From Leeuwenhoekiella nanhaiensis (GTDB lineage Bacteria; Bacteroidota; Bacteroidia; Flavobacteriales; Flavobacteriaceae): a stretch of 64,000 nt of DNA. The stretch lies in the NCBI RefSeq assembly GCF_002744755.1, contig NZ_KZ319289.1, positions 1 through 64,000 of the forward strand, given 5' to 3'. Shown here piece after piece: positions 57,303 through 63,366 of this stretch (its first letter is position 1; each line of letters begins with the position of its first letter). The position numbers and the translations under genes were made by a program. The notes beneath the pieces are model-generated. The model did no database searches and had not been told where the DNA came from. It saw only the letters and a list, made by a program, of their open reading frames with translations.

Positions 57303-59708
57303 ATGCGGATTCTTTTTACGCTTCTTTTTTTTACCTCTTTCAGTTTCGGCATTTTTGCCCAGCAAGTACGCATTTTTGATCTTCAAACCGGTGAACCTAT
57401 TGAAAATGCCAGCCTTTACAATACCGAAAAAAGCCATTCTGCAGTTTCTGACGCAGCGGGTTTTGTAGACGTTTCGGCATTTACCAATGGGGAAACCATT
57501 TTTATTTCGCACGTATCGCACCTTACCAAAAAAACGACAAAAGCTGCCCTCATTGCAGCCGGGAATGTGGTTTATCTTGCAGATGACGAAAACCTGCTGA
57601 ACGAGGTGGTGCTTTCGGTATCTAAGTTTGAGCAAAAAGAACGCGAAGTGGCTCAGAAAATCATTTCGCTTGACGCTGAAGATGTAGAACTGAAAAATCC
57701 GCAGACCGCCGCCGATTTATTAGACCAAAGCGGGCAGGTGTTCGTTCAAAAAAGTCAGTTGGGTGGCGGCAGCCCGATGATACGCGGGTTTTCAACCAAT
57801 CGCCTGCTGATTACGGTAGACGGAGTGCGAATGAATACGGCGATTTTTCGCAGCGGAAATCTTCAGAATGTAATCAATATTGATCCGCTTACCGTAGATC
57901 AAACCGAAGTTATTCTGGGTCCGGGCTCAGTAATTTACGGGAGTGATGCGGTAGGCGGGGTGATGAATTTTTACACTAAAAGACCTGCGTTTTCTTTTGA
58001 GGAAACAACCAGTTTCAGCGGGCAGGCATTAACGCGTTATGCCACGGCAAACAACGAAAAAACGGGTCACGTTGAGTTCAATATCGGCCGGAAGAAATGG
58101 GCTTTTTTAAGCAGCATCAGTTATTCTGATTTCGATGATCTTAGAATGGGTAGTCACGGGCCCGACGACTACCTGAGACCGGAATATGTGGTTACCCAAA
58201 ACGGTGTGGATGAAGTCGTTGAAAATGAAAATCCTCTGGTGCAGGTGCCCACCGGTTTTGACCTGTTGAACCTGACTCAAAAAGTGCGTTTTATGCCTAA
58301 TGCGGTTTGGGATTTTAATCTGGGATTACATTACAGCACGACCTCAGATTATGCACGTTACGACCGCCTTACCCGTAAGCGCGATGGTCAGTTGCGGGCA
58401 GCCGAGTGGTATTACGGACCACAAACCTGGTTTATGGGGAATTTTCAGATTGACAAAAAGGGAAATGGTGATTTTTACGATGAAGCCCGATTAAATGCCG
58501 CCATTCAGTATTTTGAAGAAAGCCGAAACGACCGCGATTTCGGAAAAACCGATTTATTTACCACTCAGGAGCAGGTAAATGCCTATTCATTGAGTGCAGA
58601 TTTTACTAAAAAACTACGAGAGCATCGCCTGTTTTACGGTTTAGAATATGTTTTAAACAGAATTGGTTCGTACGGCAAGCAGACCGATAGTACTAACGGA
58701 TCAGAAACGCCAACGGCCAGCAGGTATCCCGATGATTCGAGTTGGCAGTCGTTTGCCGCTTATGTGAGCGGCCAGTTCGATATAGCCGAAGCGCTTACAC
58801 TGCAAACCGGATTGCGCTACAATCAAATTTTAGTAAACGCTACTTTTGACGATGCGTTTTATGATTTTCCGTTCGAGGAAGCCGATTTGAATTTTGGGAA
58901 TGTCACGGGTTCTGCAGGCTTAAACTGGCAGACCAATGAAACCCTAAATTTACGCCTCAATCTGGGTACCGCTTTTCGCGCACCCAATATTGACGATATT
59001 GGGAAAATCTTTGACAGCGAGCCCGGTTCTGTTGTTGTCCCCAACCCCGATTTAAAAGCGGAATATGCCTATAATGTGGAGATTGGCGCCGGTTTACGTC
59101 TGGGCGAAAAATTGCGTTTAGACTTCGCAACCTATTACACCAAATTGAATAATGCGCTAGTGCGCCGCGATTTTAATCTGAATGGCGAAACCACGATTGA
59201 CTATCAGGGTGAGCCCAGCACGGTGCAAGCCATACAAAATGCGGCAAGTGCAGAAGTTTATGGTCTGGAAGCCGGTTTGGAATATCTCTTTACCAAAAAT
59301 CTGAAACTTACCTCCCAAATCAATATTACCGATGGCAGTCAGGAAGAAGATGATGGCAGCGAGGCTCCATTGCGTCACGCTGCGCCCACTTTTGGGAACA
59401 CCCACCTCATTTACCGCATGAAGCGCTGGAAGTTTGATGCTTCTGCAGTTTACAACGGGCAGTTTGATTTTGATGAACTCGCCCCGTCTCAGGTAGGCAA
59501 TGCCTATTTGTACGCACTTGACGCTAATGGGAACCCCTATTCGCCGCGTTGGTACACACTTAACCTGTACAGCGAATACCAGATCGCCAAAAACTGGAAA
59601 GCCACCGCCGCTTTAGAAAATATTACTGATCAGCGCTACCGCCCGTATTCTTCAGGAATATCAGCTCCCGGAAGGAATTTTATCTTGGCGTTGAAGGTTG
59701 GGTTTTAG
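57303..59708 (+). CDS. TonB-dependent outer-membrane receptor
   Basis: Receptor of 801 residues. Signal peptide (cleaved near IFAQQ), a CarboxypepD_reg-like domain (about 20-95), the plug (about 115-230; QVFVQKSQLGGGSPMIRGFSTNRLLITVDGVRMN in parts) and a 22-strand barrel ending in ALKVGF with a terminal Phe. The plug resembles receptors for siderophores or cobalamin more than SusC. It lies 9 bp after recO. Its last 56 codons recur at 62232-62402 with only silent changes. Confidence 0.93.
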   Translation: MRILFTLLFFTSFSFGIFAQQVRIFDLQTGEPIENASLYNTEKSHSAVSDAAGFVDVSAFTNGETIFISHVSHLTKKTTKAALIAAGNVVYLADDENLLNEVVLSVSKFEQKEREVAQKIISLDAEDVELKNPQTAADLLDQSGQVFVQKSQLGGGSPMIRGFSTNRLLITVDGVRMNTAIFRSGNLQNVINIDPLTVDQTEVILGPGSVIYGSDAVGGVMNFYTKRPAFSFEETTSFSGQALTRYATANNEKTGHVEFNIGRKKWAFLSSISYSDFDDLRMGSHGPDDYLRPEYVVTQNGVDEVVENENPLVQVPTGFDLLNLTQKVRFMPNAVWDFNLGLHYSTTSDYARYDRLTRKRDGQLRAAEWYYGPQTWFMGNFQIDKKGNGDFYDEARLNAAIQYFEESRNDRDFGKTDLFTTQEQVNAYSLSADFTKKLREHRLFYGLEYVLNRIGSYGKQTDSTNGSETPTASRYPDDSSWQSFAAYVSGQFDIAEALTLQTGLRYNQILVNATFDDAFYDFPFEEADLNFGNVTGSAGLNWQTNETLNLRLNLGTAFRAPNIDDIGKIFDSEPGSVVVPNPDLKAEYAYNVEIGAGLRLGEKLRLDFATYYTKLNNALVRRDFNLNGETTIDYQGEPSTVQAIQNAASAEVYGLEAGLEYLFTKNLKLTSQINITDGSQEEDDGSEAPLRHAAPTFGNTHLIYRMKRWKFDASAVYNGQFDFDELAPSQVGNAYLYALDANGNPYSPRWYTLNLYSEYQIAKNWKATAALENITDQRYRPYSSGISAPGRNFILALKVGF

Positions 59709-59744
59709 AAAAAATTTTCTCTTTCTGCGAAAAAAGGGTGTTTA

Positions 59745-59753
59745 CCCCCCCCC
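59745..59753. repeat. nine-C homopolymer
   Basis: A run of nine C between the receptor and the HExxH lipoprotein gene. No other such tract was noticed in the window. It lies outside coding sequence, about 50 bp before the next start. Confidence 0.8.
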
Positions 59754-59805
59754 TGTAATTAGTTAAGGTTATTTAGATTGCTACAAATAATTTTAAATAA
59801 GTGTT

Positions 59806-61605
59806 ATGAAACAGTTTTACGTTTTAGTCTGGGTCTTTTTTCTGGTTTTTGTTTTAGGATTTTTCTCTTGTGAAAAAAACGAAGAATTTATTTCTACAGA
59901 AACTGCAGTGGTAAATGATATTTCTGAGAGTGGATTGAAAGTTCCTGACCTTCAAGATGTAAAGATTAATTTTAAATCGAAAACATCCATAAATAAACTT
60001 TTTCAGTCTTCAAATAGTTCAAAGTCTAGTACAGGTAGTGATTTGAATTTCAGTATTGATTGGGAAAGCTCTTTCCCTACTGAATTCAATCCCGAAATGA
60101 ATTTAGATGTCCTATATACACCTGTTCATTTTAACAGTACAAAACGTATTAAAAGTTTTATCGCCTCGGCAACAATCAATGACACATTGGTTTCGCAAAT
60201 TGTTACTTTGGCCTATGTGGGTAAACCCAGTCTAGAGTATTTCAATGGCTATATCTTTTTTCATGATTTAACTGGAGCGTTTAAATCCAGTTCCTATTAT
60301 GAGTTTGGAGAAAAAATAAAAACTTCTTATGCTTTAAATACAAAGCGAAATTCAACAAATAAAGGGAGTTGTGCAGCAGCACAATTTGAGTATATATTGG
60401 AATATGGTCTTGATGGATACGAGGACTTTTTTGGCCCGGGTTTGTGTACAGAAGTTACAGTAGTTGCTGAGATAAGCAGTTCAGATGGTGGCGGTGGTGG
60501 CGGAAGTAATAGCGATTTCCCATCATCTGGAGGGATGTACATTCCAACCTATAGCGGTGGCGGTGGCGGTGGCGGATCGGGTGGTGGAACTTCAACTCCT
60601 TCTCCTACGTCAACTCCATCAGTTGATGACGGTTCTAATGAACCAGTAAGTACTTTAGAGCCTGATCCTTATTGGCAAGAAATTATTGCTCCTAATGAGT
60701 CTATGATAGCGACACTTGCTACTGAATTGAATCTCAATTCCACCCAAGCGGAATGGTTGCAGAATACCCAAAATAATGTTAATCTAAGGCTTTTACCTTT
60801 TCAGATAATTAATTTTTTAGACCAGAATTTATGGGGCATTGAAGCCAAAAACTTTGCCCAAGAGGCGATAGGGGTTTTGATGGATGATGGTAAGGTTTTC
60901 TGGGAAGAAGGTATAATTATAACGAAAGATGTAGAGAAATGTGCTCCTGGCATTATTTCAAAATTAATTATTGATAAGACATACCTGGATTTAGGAGATA
61001 TGGATCAGAGTGTAGTTGAACAACTTAACCTAGCAGGACATATTCTAGATATTTTTAATAGTTCCAATAAGTATAATTTGATTTTTGACGCTGCATATCT
61101 GCCTTTGAATAGTGCTGGCCAAAAAAGAAATGCAATGACAACACCTGAAAGAGATCCAAATAATCCGTACATTATAAATTTTCGTATTACTTTAGACAAA
61201 GGTTTGATAAATAATGCTACTGACCTTGCTATTGCAAGAACAATAATTCATGAATCGTTACATGCTTATTTATCATATAAATACCAAGATCAACCATTTT
61301 CGGATTTATCATCATCTTTGAGAAAACTCTTAGAAGCTAGTGGGTTTAGTAGTGATAAGGCACAGCATAACCTTATGTCGCAAGAATTTGTAAATGCTAT
61401 TTCAAATTCGTTGGCAAATTGGGATAATAATCAAATTAATCCTAATTATTATGATTATCTATCTTGGTCGGGAGCTATGTTAGCAAGTCCAGCTTACCAA
61501 TCATTAAGTACAGACTTTCAAAAAAATGTATTTGACGCGAATGTTGCAGAAGGTGATGCGCAAAATTCATTTACATCAAAAGCAAAAGGTAGTGTATGTC
61601 AATAA
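59806..61605 (+). CDS. lipoprotein with HExxH motif and Gly-rich linker
   Basis: Predicted lipoprotein of 599 residues (lipobox LGFFSC, Cys22). The first 200 residues are beta-rich; residues of about 225-280 are a Gly/Ser/Thr/Pro linker with Gly runs. The C-terminal 300 residues are helical and contain HESLH (482-486) in a helix IARTIIHESLHAYLSY, a possible zinc-metallopeptidase site. It resembles no family I know. The base composition is more AT-rich than that of its upstream neighbours. It overlaps the next gene by 10 bp. Confidence 0.7.
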   Translation: MKQFYVLVWVFFLVFVLGFFSCEKNEEFISTETAVVNDISESGLKVPDLQDVKINFKSKTSINKLFQSSNSSKSSTGSDLNFSIDWESSFPTEFNPEMNLDVLYTPVHFNSTKRIKSFIASATINDTLVSQIVTLAYVGKPSLEYFNGYIFFHDLTGAFKSSSYYEFGEKIKTSYALNTKRNSTNKGSCAAAQFEYILEYGLDGYEDFFGPGLCTEVTVVAEISSSDGGGGGGSNSDFPSSGGMYIPTYSGGGGGGGSGGGTSTPSPTSTPSVDDGSNEPVSTLEPDPYWQEIIAPNESMIATLATELNLNSTQAEWLQNTQNNVNLRLLPFQIINFLDQNLWGIEAKNFAQEAIGVLMDDGKVFWEEGIIITKDVEKCAPGIISKLIIDKTYLDLGDMDQSVVEQLNLAGHILDIFNSSNKYNLIFDAAYLPLNSAGQKRNAMTTPERDPNNPYIINFRITLDKGLINNATDLAIARTIIHESLHAYLSYKYQDQPFSDLSSSLRKLLEASGFSSDKAQHNLMSQEFVNAISNSLANWDNNQINPNYYDYLSWSGAMLASPAYQSLSTDFQKNVFDANVAEGDAQNSFTSKAKGSVCQ

Positions 61606-62153
61606 ATTATAGAAACCTCTGTTTTTTACTTTTAGTCTCGTTTATAGTTGTTACTTCGTGTAGAGCACAGAACAATGCCTCGGGAAGCCATTATGTAGAC
61701 TCTTTAGTGGTAAATGTATCCAATAAAATTATTCAAGATTATATTTTAAAAGATTTTAAAATTAGTAATCAAATTTTAGAAGTTACATCATATAATTCAG
61801 ACAAATGGTATAAAATTACTGATGAATTTCATTTAGGGCTGATAAAACCTTTACATTTAAGCAAAACGAACGATATAATTGATTTCAATGAAATTTATTC
61901 ACAAGACTATTTACTTGAGAAGGAGAAAGTTTCGCATAAAATATCGAAATGGTCGATAATTAGTCCTAATCTTGATTTCAATGAATCTGAGGAAAATGAC
62001 TTGATTTTTATTTCATTACCTGTTATAGATAGCTCGGAGATGTACGCGATGTTTTATATAGAAACGAAATATTCAGGAGACTTAGTAGTTTATAAAAAGC
62101 AATATAAAAATTACTGGGAATTTTATGCAATTGGAAACATTTGGATAGAATAG
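61596..62153 (+). CDS. small lipoprotein overlapping the HExxH gene
   Basis: Protein of 185 residues with lipobox VVTSC. The mature part is rich in Lys, Ser, Ile and Asp and shows no known domain. The 10-bp overlap with the upstream gene implies coupled expression. It may be a partner, regulator or immunity protein of the HExxH lipoprotein, but that is a guess. Confidence 0.6.
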   Translation: MSINYRNLCFLLLVSFIVVTSCRAQNNASGSHYVDSLVVNVSNKIIQDYILKDFKISNQILEVTSYNSDKWYKITDEFHLGLIKPLHLSKTNDIIDFNEIYSQDYLLEKEKVSHKISKWSIISPNLDFNESEENDLIFISLPVIDSSEMYAMFYIETKYSGDLVVYKKQYKNYWEFYAIGNIWIE

Positions 62154-62646
62154 AAGCATTGAACAATTAAATTCGATTCTGACGAAAATTTTTCCTAAAA
62201 TACAAGCTGCGCGTTTATTCATTTAAGCTCCTATTCGCCGCGTTGGTATACCTTGAATCTGTATAGCGAATACCAAATTGCCAAAAACTGGAAAGCCACC
62301 GCCGCTTTAGAGAATATTACGGACCAGCGCTATCGACCTTATTCTTCAGGAATCTCAGCTCCCGGAAGGAATTTTATCCTGGCCTTGAAGGTTGGGTTTT
62401 GAGAATTATTTAGATTACGCTAGTTAATTTTGATTAATTTAGAATCAGCCTAGCACTTAATACTTTTTAATAGTGCGATTATTTTGTTGAAAATGTTTTC
62501 GTCGGAAGGATATGTCTAAGTTTAATGATAGATAACCTTTCGCTTAAAATCCTGTTTAACTTACACTTGTCAAAAACTTTAACAACGCTCCATTCTTTAT
62601 TTAGAGGTGTTTTTTCTAAATTCCTGTTATACTAATACTTGACCTG
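62154..62646. other. accessory intergenic region with a receptor-tail remnant
   Basis: This 493-bp gap contains no gene. The first 75 bp show nothing. From 62229 to 62402 it holds a second copy of the end of the TonB receptor gene (listed separately). The remaining 244 bp are AT-rich, presumably including the promoter of the next gene. Confidence 0.7.
62229..62402 (+). pseudogene. orphan second copy of the TonB-receptor 3' end
   Basis: This stretch aligns without gaps to 59535-59708. Over 56 codons (62232-62399) the encoded protein is identical (YSPRWYTLNLYSEYQIAKNW to ALKVGF) while 16 codons differ, all silently; the stop is TGA rather than TAG. It has no start, signal or plug and cannot be expressed as a receptor. 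It looks like the tail of an allele or paralogue that was itself under protein-level selection until recently. Confidence 0.9.
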
Positions 62647-63366
62647 TTGAATTTCTATAACTCGATCATATTCTTATTATTTCTTAATGTTGCTCTTGGT
62701 TTAGCTCAAAAATCTTCATTGGAAAGCACCTATTACGAACTTTTTGATTCGAATATAGGTCCTGAAAATACTAATCTTTATAAAGGCACCGTATACACTT
62801 CAAAGTACAGAAGTATAAATGAATTCACTCCAAGGCTTTATTTTGATTACATTGATGGGTCAATACTTTATGATGGTCAATGGTATTTCAGAGTGTCAAT
62901 CAATTATAATGTTTATGACGATCTTATCTTGATGCGTCTGCCGATGGCTTCCAGAAATGTTTTAGTACAGCCATTGCAACAGCAAGTTGAATGTTTTCGC
63001 TTGGAGGATAGATTTTTTGTGCATATTGACTGGGAAGAATTAAAAGGTTTTTACGAGCAGCTTGTTCAATTTGAAGATTTGGATTTAGGTCTTTATAGAA
63101 AACTTAGAAAAAATCGCAATGATAAAAATAATAAAGTATACGAGTATTCAGAATTCAATGATCGAAAACCTATTTATTACCTTAAGTACGATGGAAAATA
63201 TTACAATTTGAAAAGTTATAAAATTCTGAAGCAACTTTTTCCACAGCTAAGCGAAGTTATTGTTCAGGGGCATAAAGAAAGTCGAAATTTATCAAAAGTA
63301 GATGTTGCAGCTTATTATTCTCGACTTCTACAAATCATTTATAAAAATATTTCGATACACTCTTAA
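62647..63366 (+). CDS. exported protein next to an STN receptor
   Basis: Protein of 239 residues from a TTG at 62647. Signal peptide cleaved near LGLAQ. The mature protein has a beta-rich N-terminal half (NYNVYDDLILMRLP) and a basic C-terminal half with repeated Lys/Tyr patterns. No known domain. Its stop touches the ATG of the STN-receptor gene with no gap, so the two are surely co-transcribed and likely work at the outer membrane together. Confidence 0.65.
   Translation: MNFYNSIIFLLFLNVALGLAQKSSLESTYYELFDSNIGPENTNLYKGTVYTSKYRSINEFTPRLYFDYIDGSILYDGQWYFRVSINYNVYDDLILMRLPMASRNVLVQPLQQQVECFRLEDRFFVHIDWEELKGFYEQLVQFEDLDLGLYRKLRKNRNDKNNKVYEYSEFNDRKPIYYLKYDGKYYNLKSYKILKQLFPQLSEVIVQGHKESRNLSKVDVAAYYSRLLQIIYKNISIHS

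What the first reader, a model, noticed from the sequence alone, without database searches (positions are those of the whole stretch)
62229..62402. Orphan tail of a TonB receptor gene with only silent differences from the intact copy
The last 56 codons of the receptor at 57303-59708 recur 2.7 kb downstream. The two copies encode the same 56 residues, yet 16 codons differ, all at synonymous positions, and the stop codons differ (TAG versus TGA). A local duplication that decayed would collect replacement changes and indels; this pattern says the orphan tail came from a receptor gene under purifying selection, such as an orthologue in another strain or a lost tandem paralogue. The simplest reading is that a foreign segment carrying the HExxH lipoprotein pair entered by recombination within the conserved receptor end, leaving two tails around the insert. 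An 11-bp AT-rich match (59769-59779 and 62406-62416) downstream of both tails is weak extra support.
Basis: partly seen in the sequence, partly recalled or inferred. Interest (0 to 1): 0.72.

Follow-up and report, generated by a model that had tools for sequence, protein, structure and literature searches.

The report
Receptor gene tail stranded by insertion
In marine Leeuwenhoekiella bacteria the end of one membrane-receptor gene is repeatedly left behind as a small leftover piece where foreign gene cassettes, one of them a toxin-like pair, have entered the spot just after it, so the leftovers record past gene swaps.

Summary
The last 56 codons plus stop of the TonB receptor (59536-59708) recur at 62230-62402 with 16 synonymous codon changes, a different stop and no amino-acid change. 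The nearest relative, L. parthenopeia, is the predicted empty site: one tail, followed directly by the homologue of the sequence after 62402. The pattern recurs. Five of 13 genomes of the genus carry an orphan tail of this receptor (16 to 79 codons), as do 2 of 63 loci outside it, one around a restriction-modification system; 79 further family loci gave none, and 1,047 other ORFs gave none. Orphans can be foreign (G001: 86% to another clade's receptor end, 76% to its own), and a receptor end has moved together with the next gene between species. Best reading: the stretch after the receptor is a gene-exchange hotspot; incoming DNA recombines in the conserved receptor end, its other end joins with little homology, and one receptor end stays as an orphan. 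The cassette here looks like a surface effector (HExxH) with an exported immunity-like partner; both roles are inferred. Whether this orphan is the resident or the donor allele is unresolved. Known kind of event, unusual site.

The parts
57303..59708 (+). TonB-dependent receptor (plug + beta barrel), 801 aa; left homology arm of the exchange site
   Evidence: Pfam; orthologue beside recO in 13 of 13 genomes of the genus
59536..59708 (+). receptor tail, intact copy
59709..62229 (.). inserted cassette, 33% G+C, absent from L. parthenopeia
59806..61605 (+). lipoprotein (signal judged by eye), 599 aa: N-terminal part with relatives in G001 and G003, Gly-rich linker, middle segment also in G008, C-terminal HExxH domain (HESLH at 61249-61263); effector-like
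61596..62153 (+). small lipoprotein (signal judged by eye) whose gene overlaps the effector gene by 10 nt; immunity-like by position and export signal (inferred)
   Evidence: comparable ORFs elsewhere; no Pfam or NCBIfam match
62230..62402 (+). orphan receptor tail, 56 codons + stop
62403..62640 (.). flank after the orphan; its first part is homologous to the flank after the intact receptor of L. parthenopeia (328-nt match incl. the tail, 84%)
62647..63366 (+). first gene (c24) of the neighbour block that G000 and L. parthenopeia share before ileS; marks the right side of the insertion

Best explanation
The orphan tail is the stranded end of a receptor allele. Foreign DNA carrying a toxin-like lipoprotein and its immunity-like partner was taken up and recombined with the resident chromosome, anchored by homology in the conserved 3' end of the receptor gene. 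The other end of the incoming DNA joined, without extended homology, inside the receptor end of the other parent, leaving an intact receptor, the cassette, a truncated second receptor end, and then the old neighbours. In the genus this has happened repeatedly after this receptor, and finished blocks (cassette plus tail) probably also spread between species by ordinary recombination. Shown: the two tails, the silent divergence, the empty site, recurrence, orphans from other clades in relatives, co-transfer of receptor end and cargo. Inferred: the one-homologous-end mechanism, the toxin and immunity roles, and which tail is resident here.
For: Empty site in the sister genome. Orphan tails of this receptor in 5 of 13 genomes of the genus (79, 57, 29, 24 and 16 codons compared); without the window's own genome 4 of 12. 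Orphans close to other clades: G001 86% to G000, G002 and G004 and 76% to its own receptor; G003 85% to G010 and G011 and 79% to its own (72 nt); G008 87.5% to G000 and 71% to its own (48 nt). G008's cassette is 94% identical to G000's over 237 nt although the receptors are 71-72% identical, and it joins the receptor stop at a short shared TTTAG. G002-G003 identity climbs inside the receptor from 76% to 96% at its last 25 codons, is 94% in the next gene and 60-84% in four genes beyond. G003, 99% identical to G009 in the two upstream genes, drops to 75-81% at receptor codons 726-776. G003 has a probable further mini-tail just before its cassette.
Against: No donor with the G000 cassette was found in 299 family genomes. 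The two G000 tails are not distinguishable as resident and donor. Illegitimate joints elsewhere in the 2.4-kb receptor would leave longer tails, and none above about 80 codons is seen. The cassette-side joint of the G000 orphan cannot be read without the donor. G003's orphan is only 82% like the receptor end of its sister G009, so it is not simply the old G003 tail. The mini-tail in G003 scores no better than shuffles when the whole gap is scanned (21 of 30, background maximum 21); it stands out only in the 209-nt interval before the cassette. Outside the genus orphan tails are rare: 2 of 63 and 0 of 79.
Confidence: 0.72

Rival explanations
1. Insertion with long target duplication: the cassette inserted and duplicated the resident receptor end, both copies starting identical and diverging later.
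For: Direct long duplication flanking an insert; in locus L146 the insert is a restriction-modification system, a cargo class for which such insertions are described (PMC3031569, passages read).
Against: 16 silent and no replacement codon differences in a copy that would be free to decay; in G001 the two tails are only 76% identical and the orphan is closer to another clade.
Confidence: 0.1
2. Site-specific integration into the receptor 3' end by an element that carries its own copy of that end, as recalled for the phage-like e14 in icd.
For: The result (restored gene, displaced native end) has the same shape.
Against: The two cassette ORFs of the window match no recombinase family. The other four genus inserts were viewed as ORFs and scanned only in part. 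Left ends of the orphans vary from 16 to 79 codons.
Confidence: 0.06
3. Lost tandem paralogue: a second complete receptor gene decayed down to its end.
For: Would explain silent divergence if the loss was recent.
Against: No second full-length receptor beside the first among the matches listed for 60 genomes, weaker matches not being listed; L. parthenopeia has one tail at the joint.
Confidence: 0.06
4. The orphan tail is kept for a function, for instance as a homology arm or regulatory end for cassette exchange.
For: Silent-only divergence; tails recur; a block with its tail may have moved from the G000/G004 clade into G008.
Against: The G011 orphan has a stop codon and G008's has replacement changes; recent origin explains the silent pattern without function.
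Confidence: 0.06

Closest known systems
Stepwise displacement of effector-immunity modules in Vibrio cholerae T6SS clusters, proposed to occur by homology-facilitated illegitimate recombination (PMC5361080, passages read)
   Same: Incoming module anchored in a conserved upstream stretch; displaced 3' ends pushed downstream; toxin-immunity type cargo
   Different: There the displaced end belongs to the effector itself; here it belongs to an unrelated receptor gene upstream of the cargo, and the cargo is mixed
Insertion with long target duplication (Nobusato et al. 2000, seen only as a cited title; described in passages of PMC3031569)
   Same: Long direct duplication around an insert; R-M cargo in L146
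   Different: At least in G001 and probably in G000 the two tails are different alleles, not one duplicated target
e14/icd type integration into a gene 3' end (recalled; only a search listing was seen)
   Same: Intact gene plus displaced end with mostly silent differences (recalled)
   Different: No integrase seen, variable joint
Polymorphic toxin systems (PMC3482391, search listing only)
   Same: Shared N-terminal region, variable C-terminal part, exported partner gene directly downstream
   Different: No known trafficking domain recognised; toxicity and immunity untested

Membership tests
Displacement by homology-facilitated illegitimate recombination | One end of the import joined by homologous recombination in a conserved gene | tested here: met
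   Met in relatives: receptor end and next gene co-transferred between G002 and G003, drop at codon 726 in G003. In G000 itself inconclusive
Displacement by homology-facilitated illegitimate recombination | Other end joined with little or no homology | tested here: inconclusive
   Tail left ends differ in each of the five genomes; only in G008 was a joint read, with TTTAG microhomology, and there it is the joint on the receptor side of the cassette
Displacement by homology-facilitated illegitimate recombination | Displaced old 3' end remains downstream | tested here: met
   Orphan tails in 5 of 13 genomes; orphan next to the resident neighbours in G000
Insertion with long target duplication | Both copies derive from one resident target | tested here: not met
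   G001 tails 76% identical with the orphan nearer to another clade; in G000 the silent-only pattern argues against it
Site-specific integration at a gene end | Recombinase in the element | tested here: not met
   Neither G000 cassette ORF matches a recombinase family in Pfam or NCBIfam; a helper elsewhere is not excluded
Site-specific integration at a gene end | Constant crossover point | tested here: not met
   Orphans of 16 to 79 codons; later trimming cannot be excluded
Polymorphic toxin-immunity pair | Common N-terminal region with exchangeable C-terminal domains | tested here: met
   G000, G001 and G003 share the N-terminal and middle part, G008 the middle part, and the C-terminal parts differ; the HExxH domain occurs elsewhere. 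Relatives are broken or truncated
Polymorphic toxin-immunity pair | Toxin domain of a known kind | tested here: inconclusive
   SprT-like in 9 of 16 homologues (best 8e-5), Metallopeptidase toxin 3 in 2 of 16 (best 2e-3); the window protein reaches only 0.09 for SprT-like
Polymorphic toxin-immunity pair | Partner neutralises the toxin | not testable with these tools
   Needs expression experiments

The most novel reading that the evidence does not exclude
The conserved end of a core TonB receptor works as an integrase-free docking site: each cassette travels with a copy of that end, which then serves as the homology arm for the next exchange, so receptor tails act like the repeats of a cassette array and record the order of acquisition.
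Probability: 0.15. Interest if true: 0.65.

Novelty: new variant of a known kind. Interest (0 to 1): 0.42.

Why it matters
Stranded gene ends can date and polarise acquisitions at a hypervariable site and show how cargo without its own transposase, such as effector-immunity pairs and R-M systems, enters a fixed chromosomal slot. The end of one core gene being used repeatedly in a genus makes the one-sided recombination model testable by sequencing more strains.

Tried and rejected
Ancestral receptor/c17 convergence: I first took the 848-aa gene c17 beside the G003 orphan for the 855-aa convergent gene of other genera; the search found c17 only in G003, G010 and G011 of 171 loci and the idea was dropped. 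Structure models of the effector C-terminal part (2 sequences) and of the partner (1 sequence) had mean pLDDT 36 and 33 and were not used. A PDB profile search gave weak matches only, two SprT-like chains at 0.035 and 0.05, many antibody linkers and one uncharacterised protein. The tail trees do not place the G000 orphan (support 28 and 45 at its branch). The 11-bp match is not independent support. Alignment A2 used 14 of the 17 resolved loci (L071, L169 and L176 left out; L071 has no HExxH, the other two were left out without a test) plus the window and L083. Paper searches for related reports in flavobacteria found nothing on point in their listings. One R-M mobility paper is not held.

Full report
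WHAT IS THERE. The receptor at 57303-59708 ends in a 173-nt stretch that recurs at 62230-62402. 19 positions differ. In the 56 full codons 17 nt and 16 codons are changed, all silently, and TAG is replaced by TGA. A free copy would be expected to show about 74% replacement changes; none in 17 has probability about 1e-10. A path-averaged count over 57 codons gives 16 silent and 2 replacement changes because it includes the codon at the left edge and one leucine codon with two changes. The whole genome, 4.37 Mb in 49 contigs, gives two matches to the tail. Because the copies differ by 11%, an assembly artefact is unlikely (inference).

WHERE. The nearest named genomes are Leeuwenhoekiella. In 10 of 13 genomes of the genus the order is PorZ-like, recO, receptor, a gap, ileS; in G006, G007 and G012 no ileS was seen in the stretch (the names PorZ and ileS are recalled from length and sequence, recO is from Pfam). 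In the outgroup G019 ileS starts about 140 nt after the receptor. In the ten genomes the gap is about 1.2 to 9.7 kb and its content differs.

EMPTY SITE. In L. parthenopeia the receptor tail is followed by sequence homologous to that after the G000 orphan, and then by the same genes c24-c27 and ileS. G000 and L. parthenopeia are 91% identical over the receptor, 90% over the intact tail and 87% for the orphan. So the insert is 59709-62229 plus one of the two tails.

RECURRENCE. A search with each genome's own last 110 residues found a receptor tail downstream in 5 of 13 genomes of the genus: G000, G001, G003, G008 and G011. G008 is the weakest (16 residues, E 0.002); G011's copy has a stop codon. 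Leaving out the window's genome, where the pattern was first noticed, it is 4 of 12. Among the loci, 72 of 80 had at least 1.5 kb downstream; of these 9 are in the genus and 2 of the other 63 had a tail: L128, and L146, whose copy ends four residues short of the receptor end. A further 79 of 80 family loci gave none; these overlap in part with the 63. As a control, the same test on ORFs of at least 150 codons gave 5 of 13 receptors against 0 of 135 other ORFs in the genus (Fisher p 2e-6), and 2 of 70 receptors against 0 of 912 other ORFs elsewhere (p 0.005). One search used a stricter threshold on the same loci, 1130 ORFs: 6 hits, all receptors. The receptor was chosen because of the finding and the genomes are related, so the p values are optimistic.

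ORIGIN OF THE TAILS. The G001 orphan is 86% identical to the receptor ends of G000, G002 and G004 (86% also to G003) and 76% to its own; G008's is 87.5% to G000 and 71% to its own (48 nt only); G003's is 85% to G010 and G011, 82% to its sister G009 and 79% to its own (72 nt); G011's is 88.5% to G010 and 82% to its own (87 nt). Receptor ends and cargo travel together: G002 and G003 are 66% and 74% identical in the two upstream genes, 76% at receptor codons 676-701, 96% at the last 25, 94% in the next gene (beta-lactamase-type serine hydrolase family), 84% in ileS and 60-76% in three genes further on. G003 and its sister G009 are 99% identical in the two upstream genes but 75-81% at receptor codons 726-776, and also diverge around codons 565-670, so the receptor is a mosaic with more than one replaced stretch. 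G008's cassette is 94% identical to that of G000 over 237 nt and joins the receptor stop with a shared TTTAG. The 50 nt before G008's ileS are 98% like G000 and G004, against 92-96% for the other genomes, a difference of one to three bases, and its ileS start is closest to G001, so block transfer into G008 rests mainly on the cassette. In G003 a further probable tail remnant, 24 of 33 positions, lies just before the cassette leader; 0 of 300 simulated sequences of that 209-nt interval reached it, but in a scan of the whole gap it is no better than the background maximum.

THE CARGO. Within the genus the 599-aa lipoprotein (query: its first 391 residues) has relatives only in G001, G003 and G008, at this site, broken or truncated. 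So 4 of the 5 genomes with an orphan tail carry it and none of the 8 without. Two distant relatives of that part were found among 299 family genomes. Its C-terminal 220 residues have relatives in 32 of 299 family genomes, this one included. The HExxH residues and a later histidine are invariant in a 16-sequence alignment. SprT-like matches 9 of 16 and Metallopeptidase toxin 3 matches 2 of 16, weakly. In 8 of the 17 loci where the script resolved the main ORF (31 looked at), another ORF starts between 34 nt before and 3 nt after its end, as in the window; in one of the eight, L071, the C-terminal part has no HExxH. Effector and immunity roles are inferred. L146 carries a C5 cytosine methylase and an EcoO109I-type endonuclease piece between its tails; L128 carries a small ORF without a Pfam match and a protein with a T9SS sorting tail. 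So the site is not tied to one cargo.

MECHANISM. The data fit one homologous end in the receptor and one illegitimate end, as proposed for Vibrio effector-immunity arrays (PMC5361080, passages read), perhaps followed by block exchange. In G000 I cannot say which tail is resident: the orphan keeps the resident neighbours, but both tails are about as far from L. parthenopeia as the rest of the gene, and no donor was found.

VERDICT. A real, recurrent footprint of recombination at a core gene end. The kind of event is known; the use of this receptor end as an acceptor site across a genus I did not find described in the listings of the searches made.

Noticed in passing
window 59745-59753: A run of nine C lies 52 bp before the lipoprotein gene; G001 has ten and G003 five C at the matching place, so a length-variable tract that could switch expression is possible.
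   Followed up: no
L146:12706-14396: A restriction-modification system (MerR-C5 methylase and EcoO109I-type endonuclease piece) sits between the receptor and an orphan receptor tail.
   Followed up: partly
L052 (G003) ileS and receptor: Both genes flanking the site are mosaics: different stretches are closest to G009, G010 or G002.
   Followed up: partly
L050, L052, L057: The effector-like lipoprotein genes at this site in G001, G003 and G008 are broken or truncated while the one in the window is open.
   Followed up: no
window 62647 onward, L049 to ileS: A block c24-c27 (c25 with carboxypeptidase-regulatory-like and weak FecR_C-like matches at its start) lies between the site and ileS only in G000 and L. 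parthenopeia among the 13 stretches seen.
   Followed up: no
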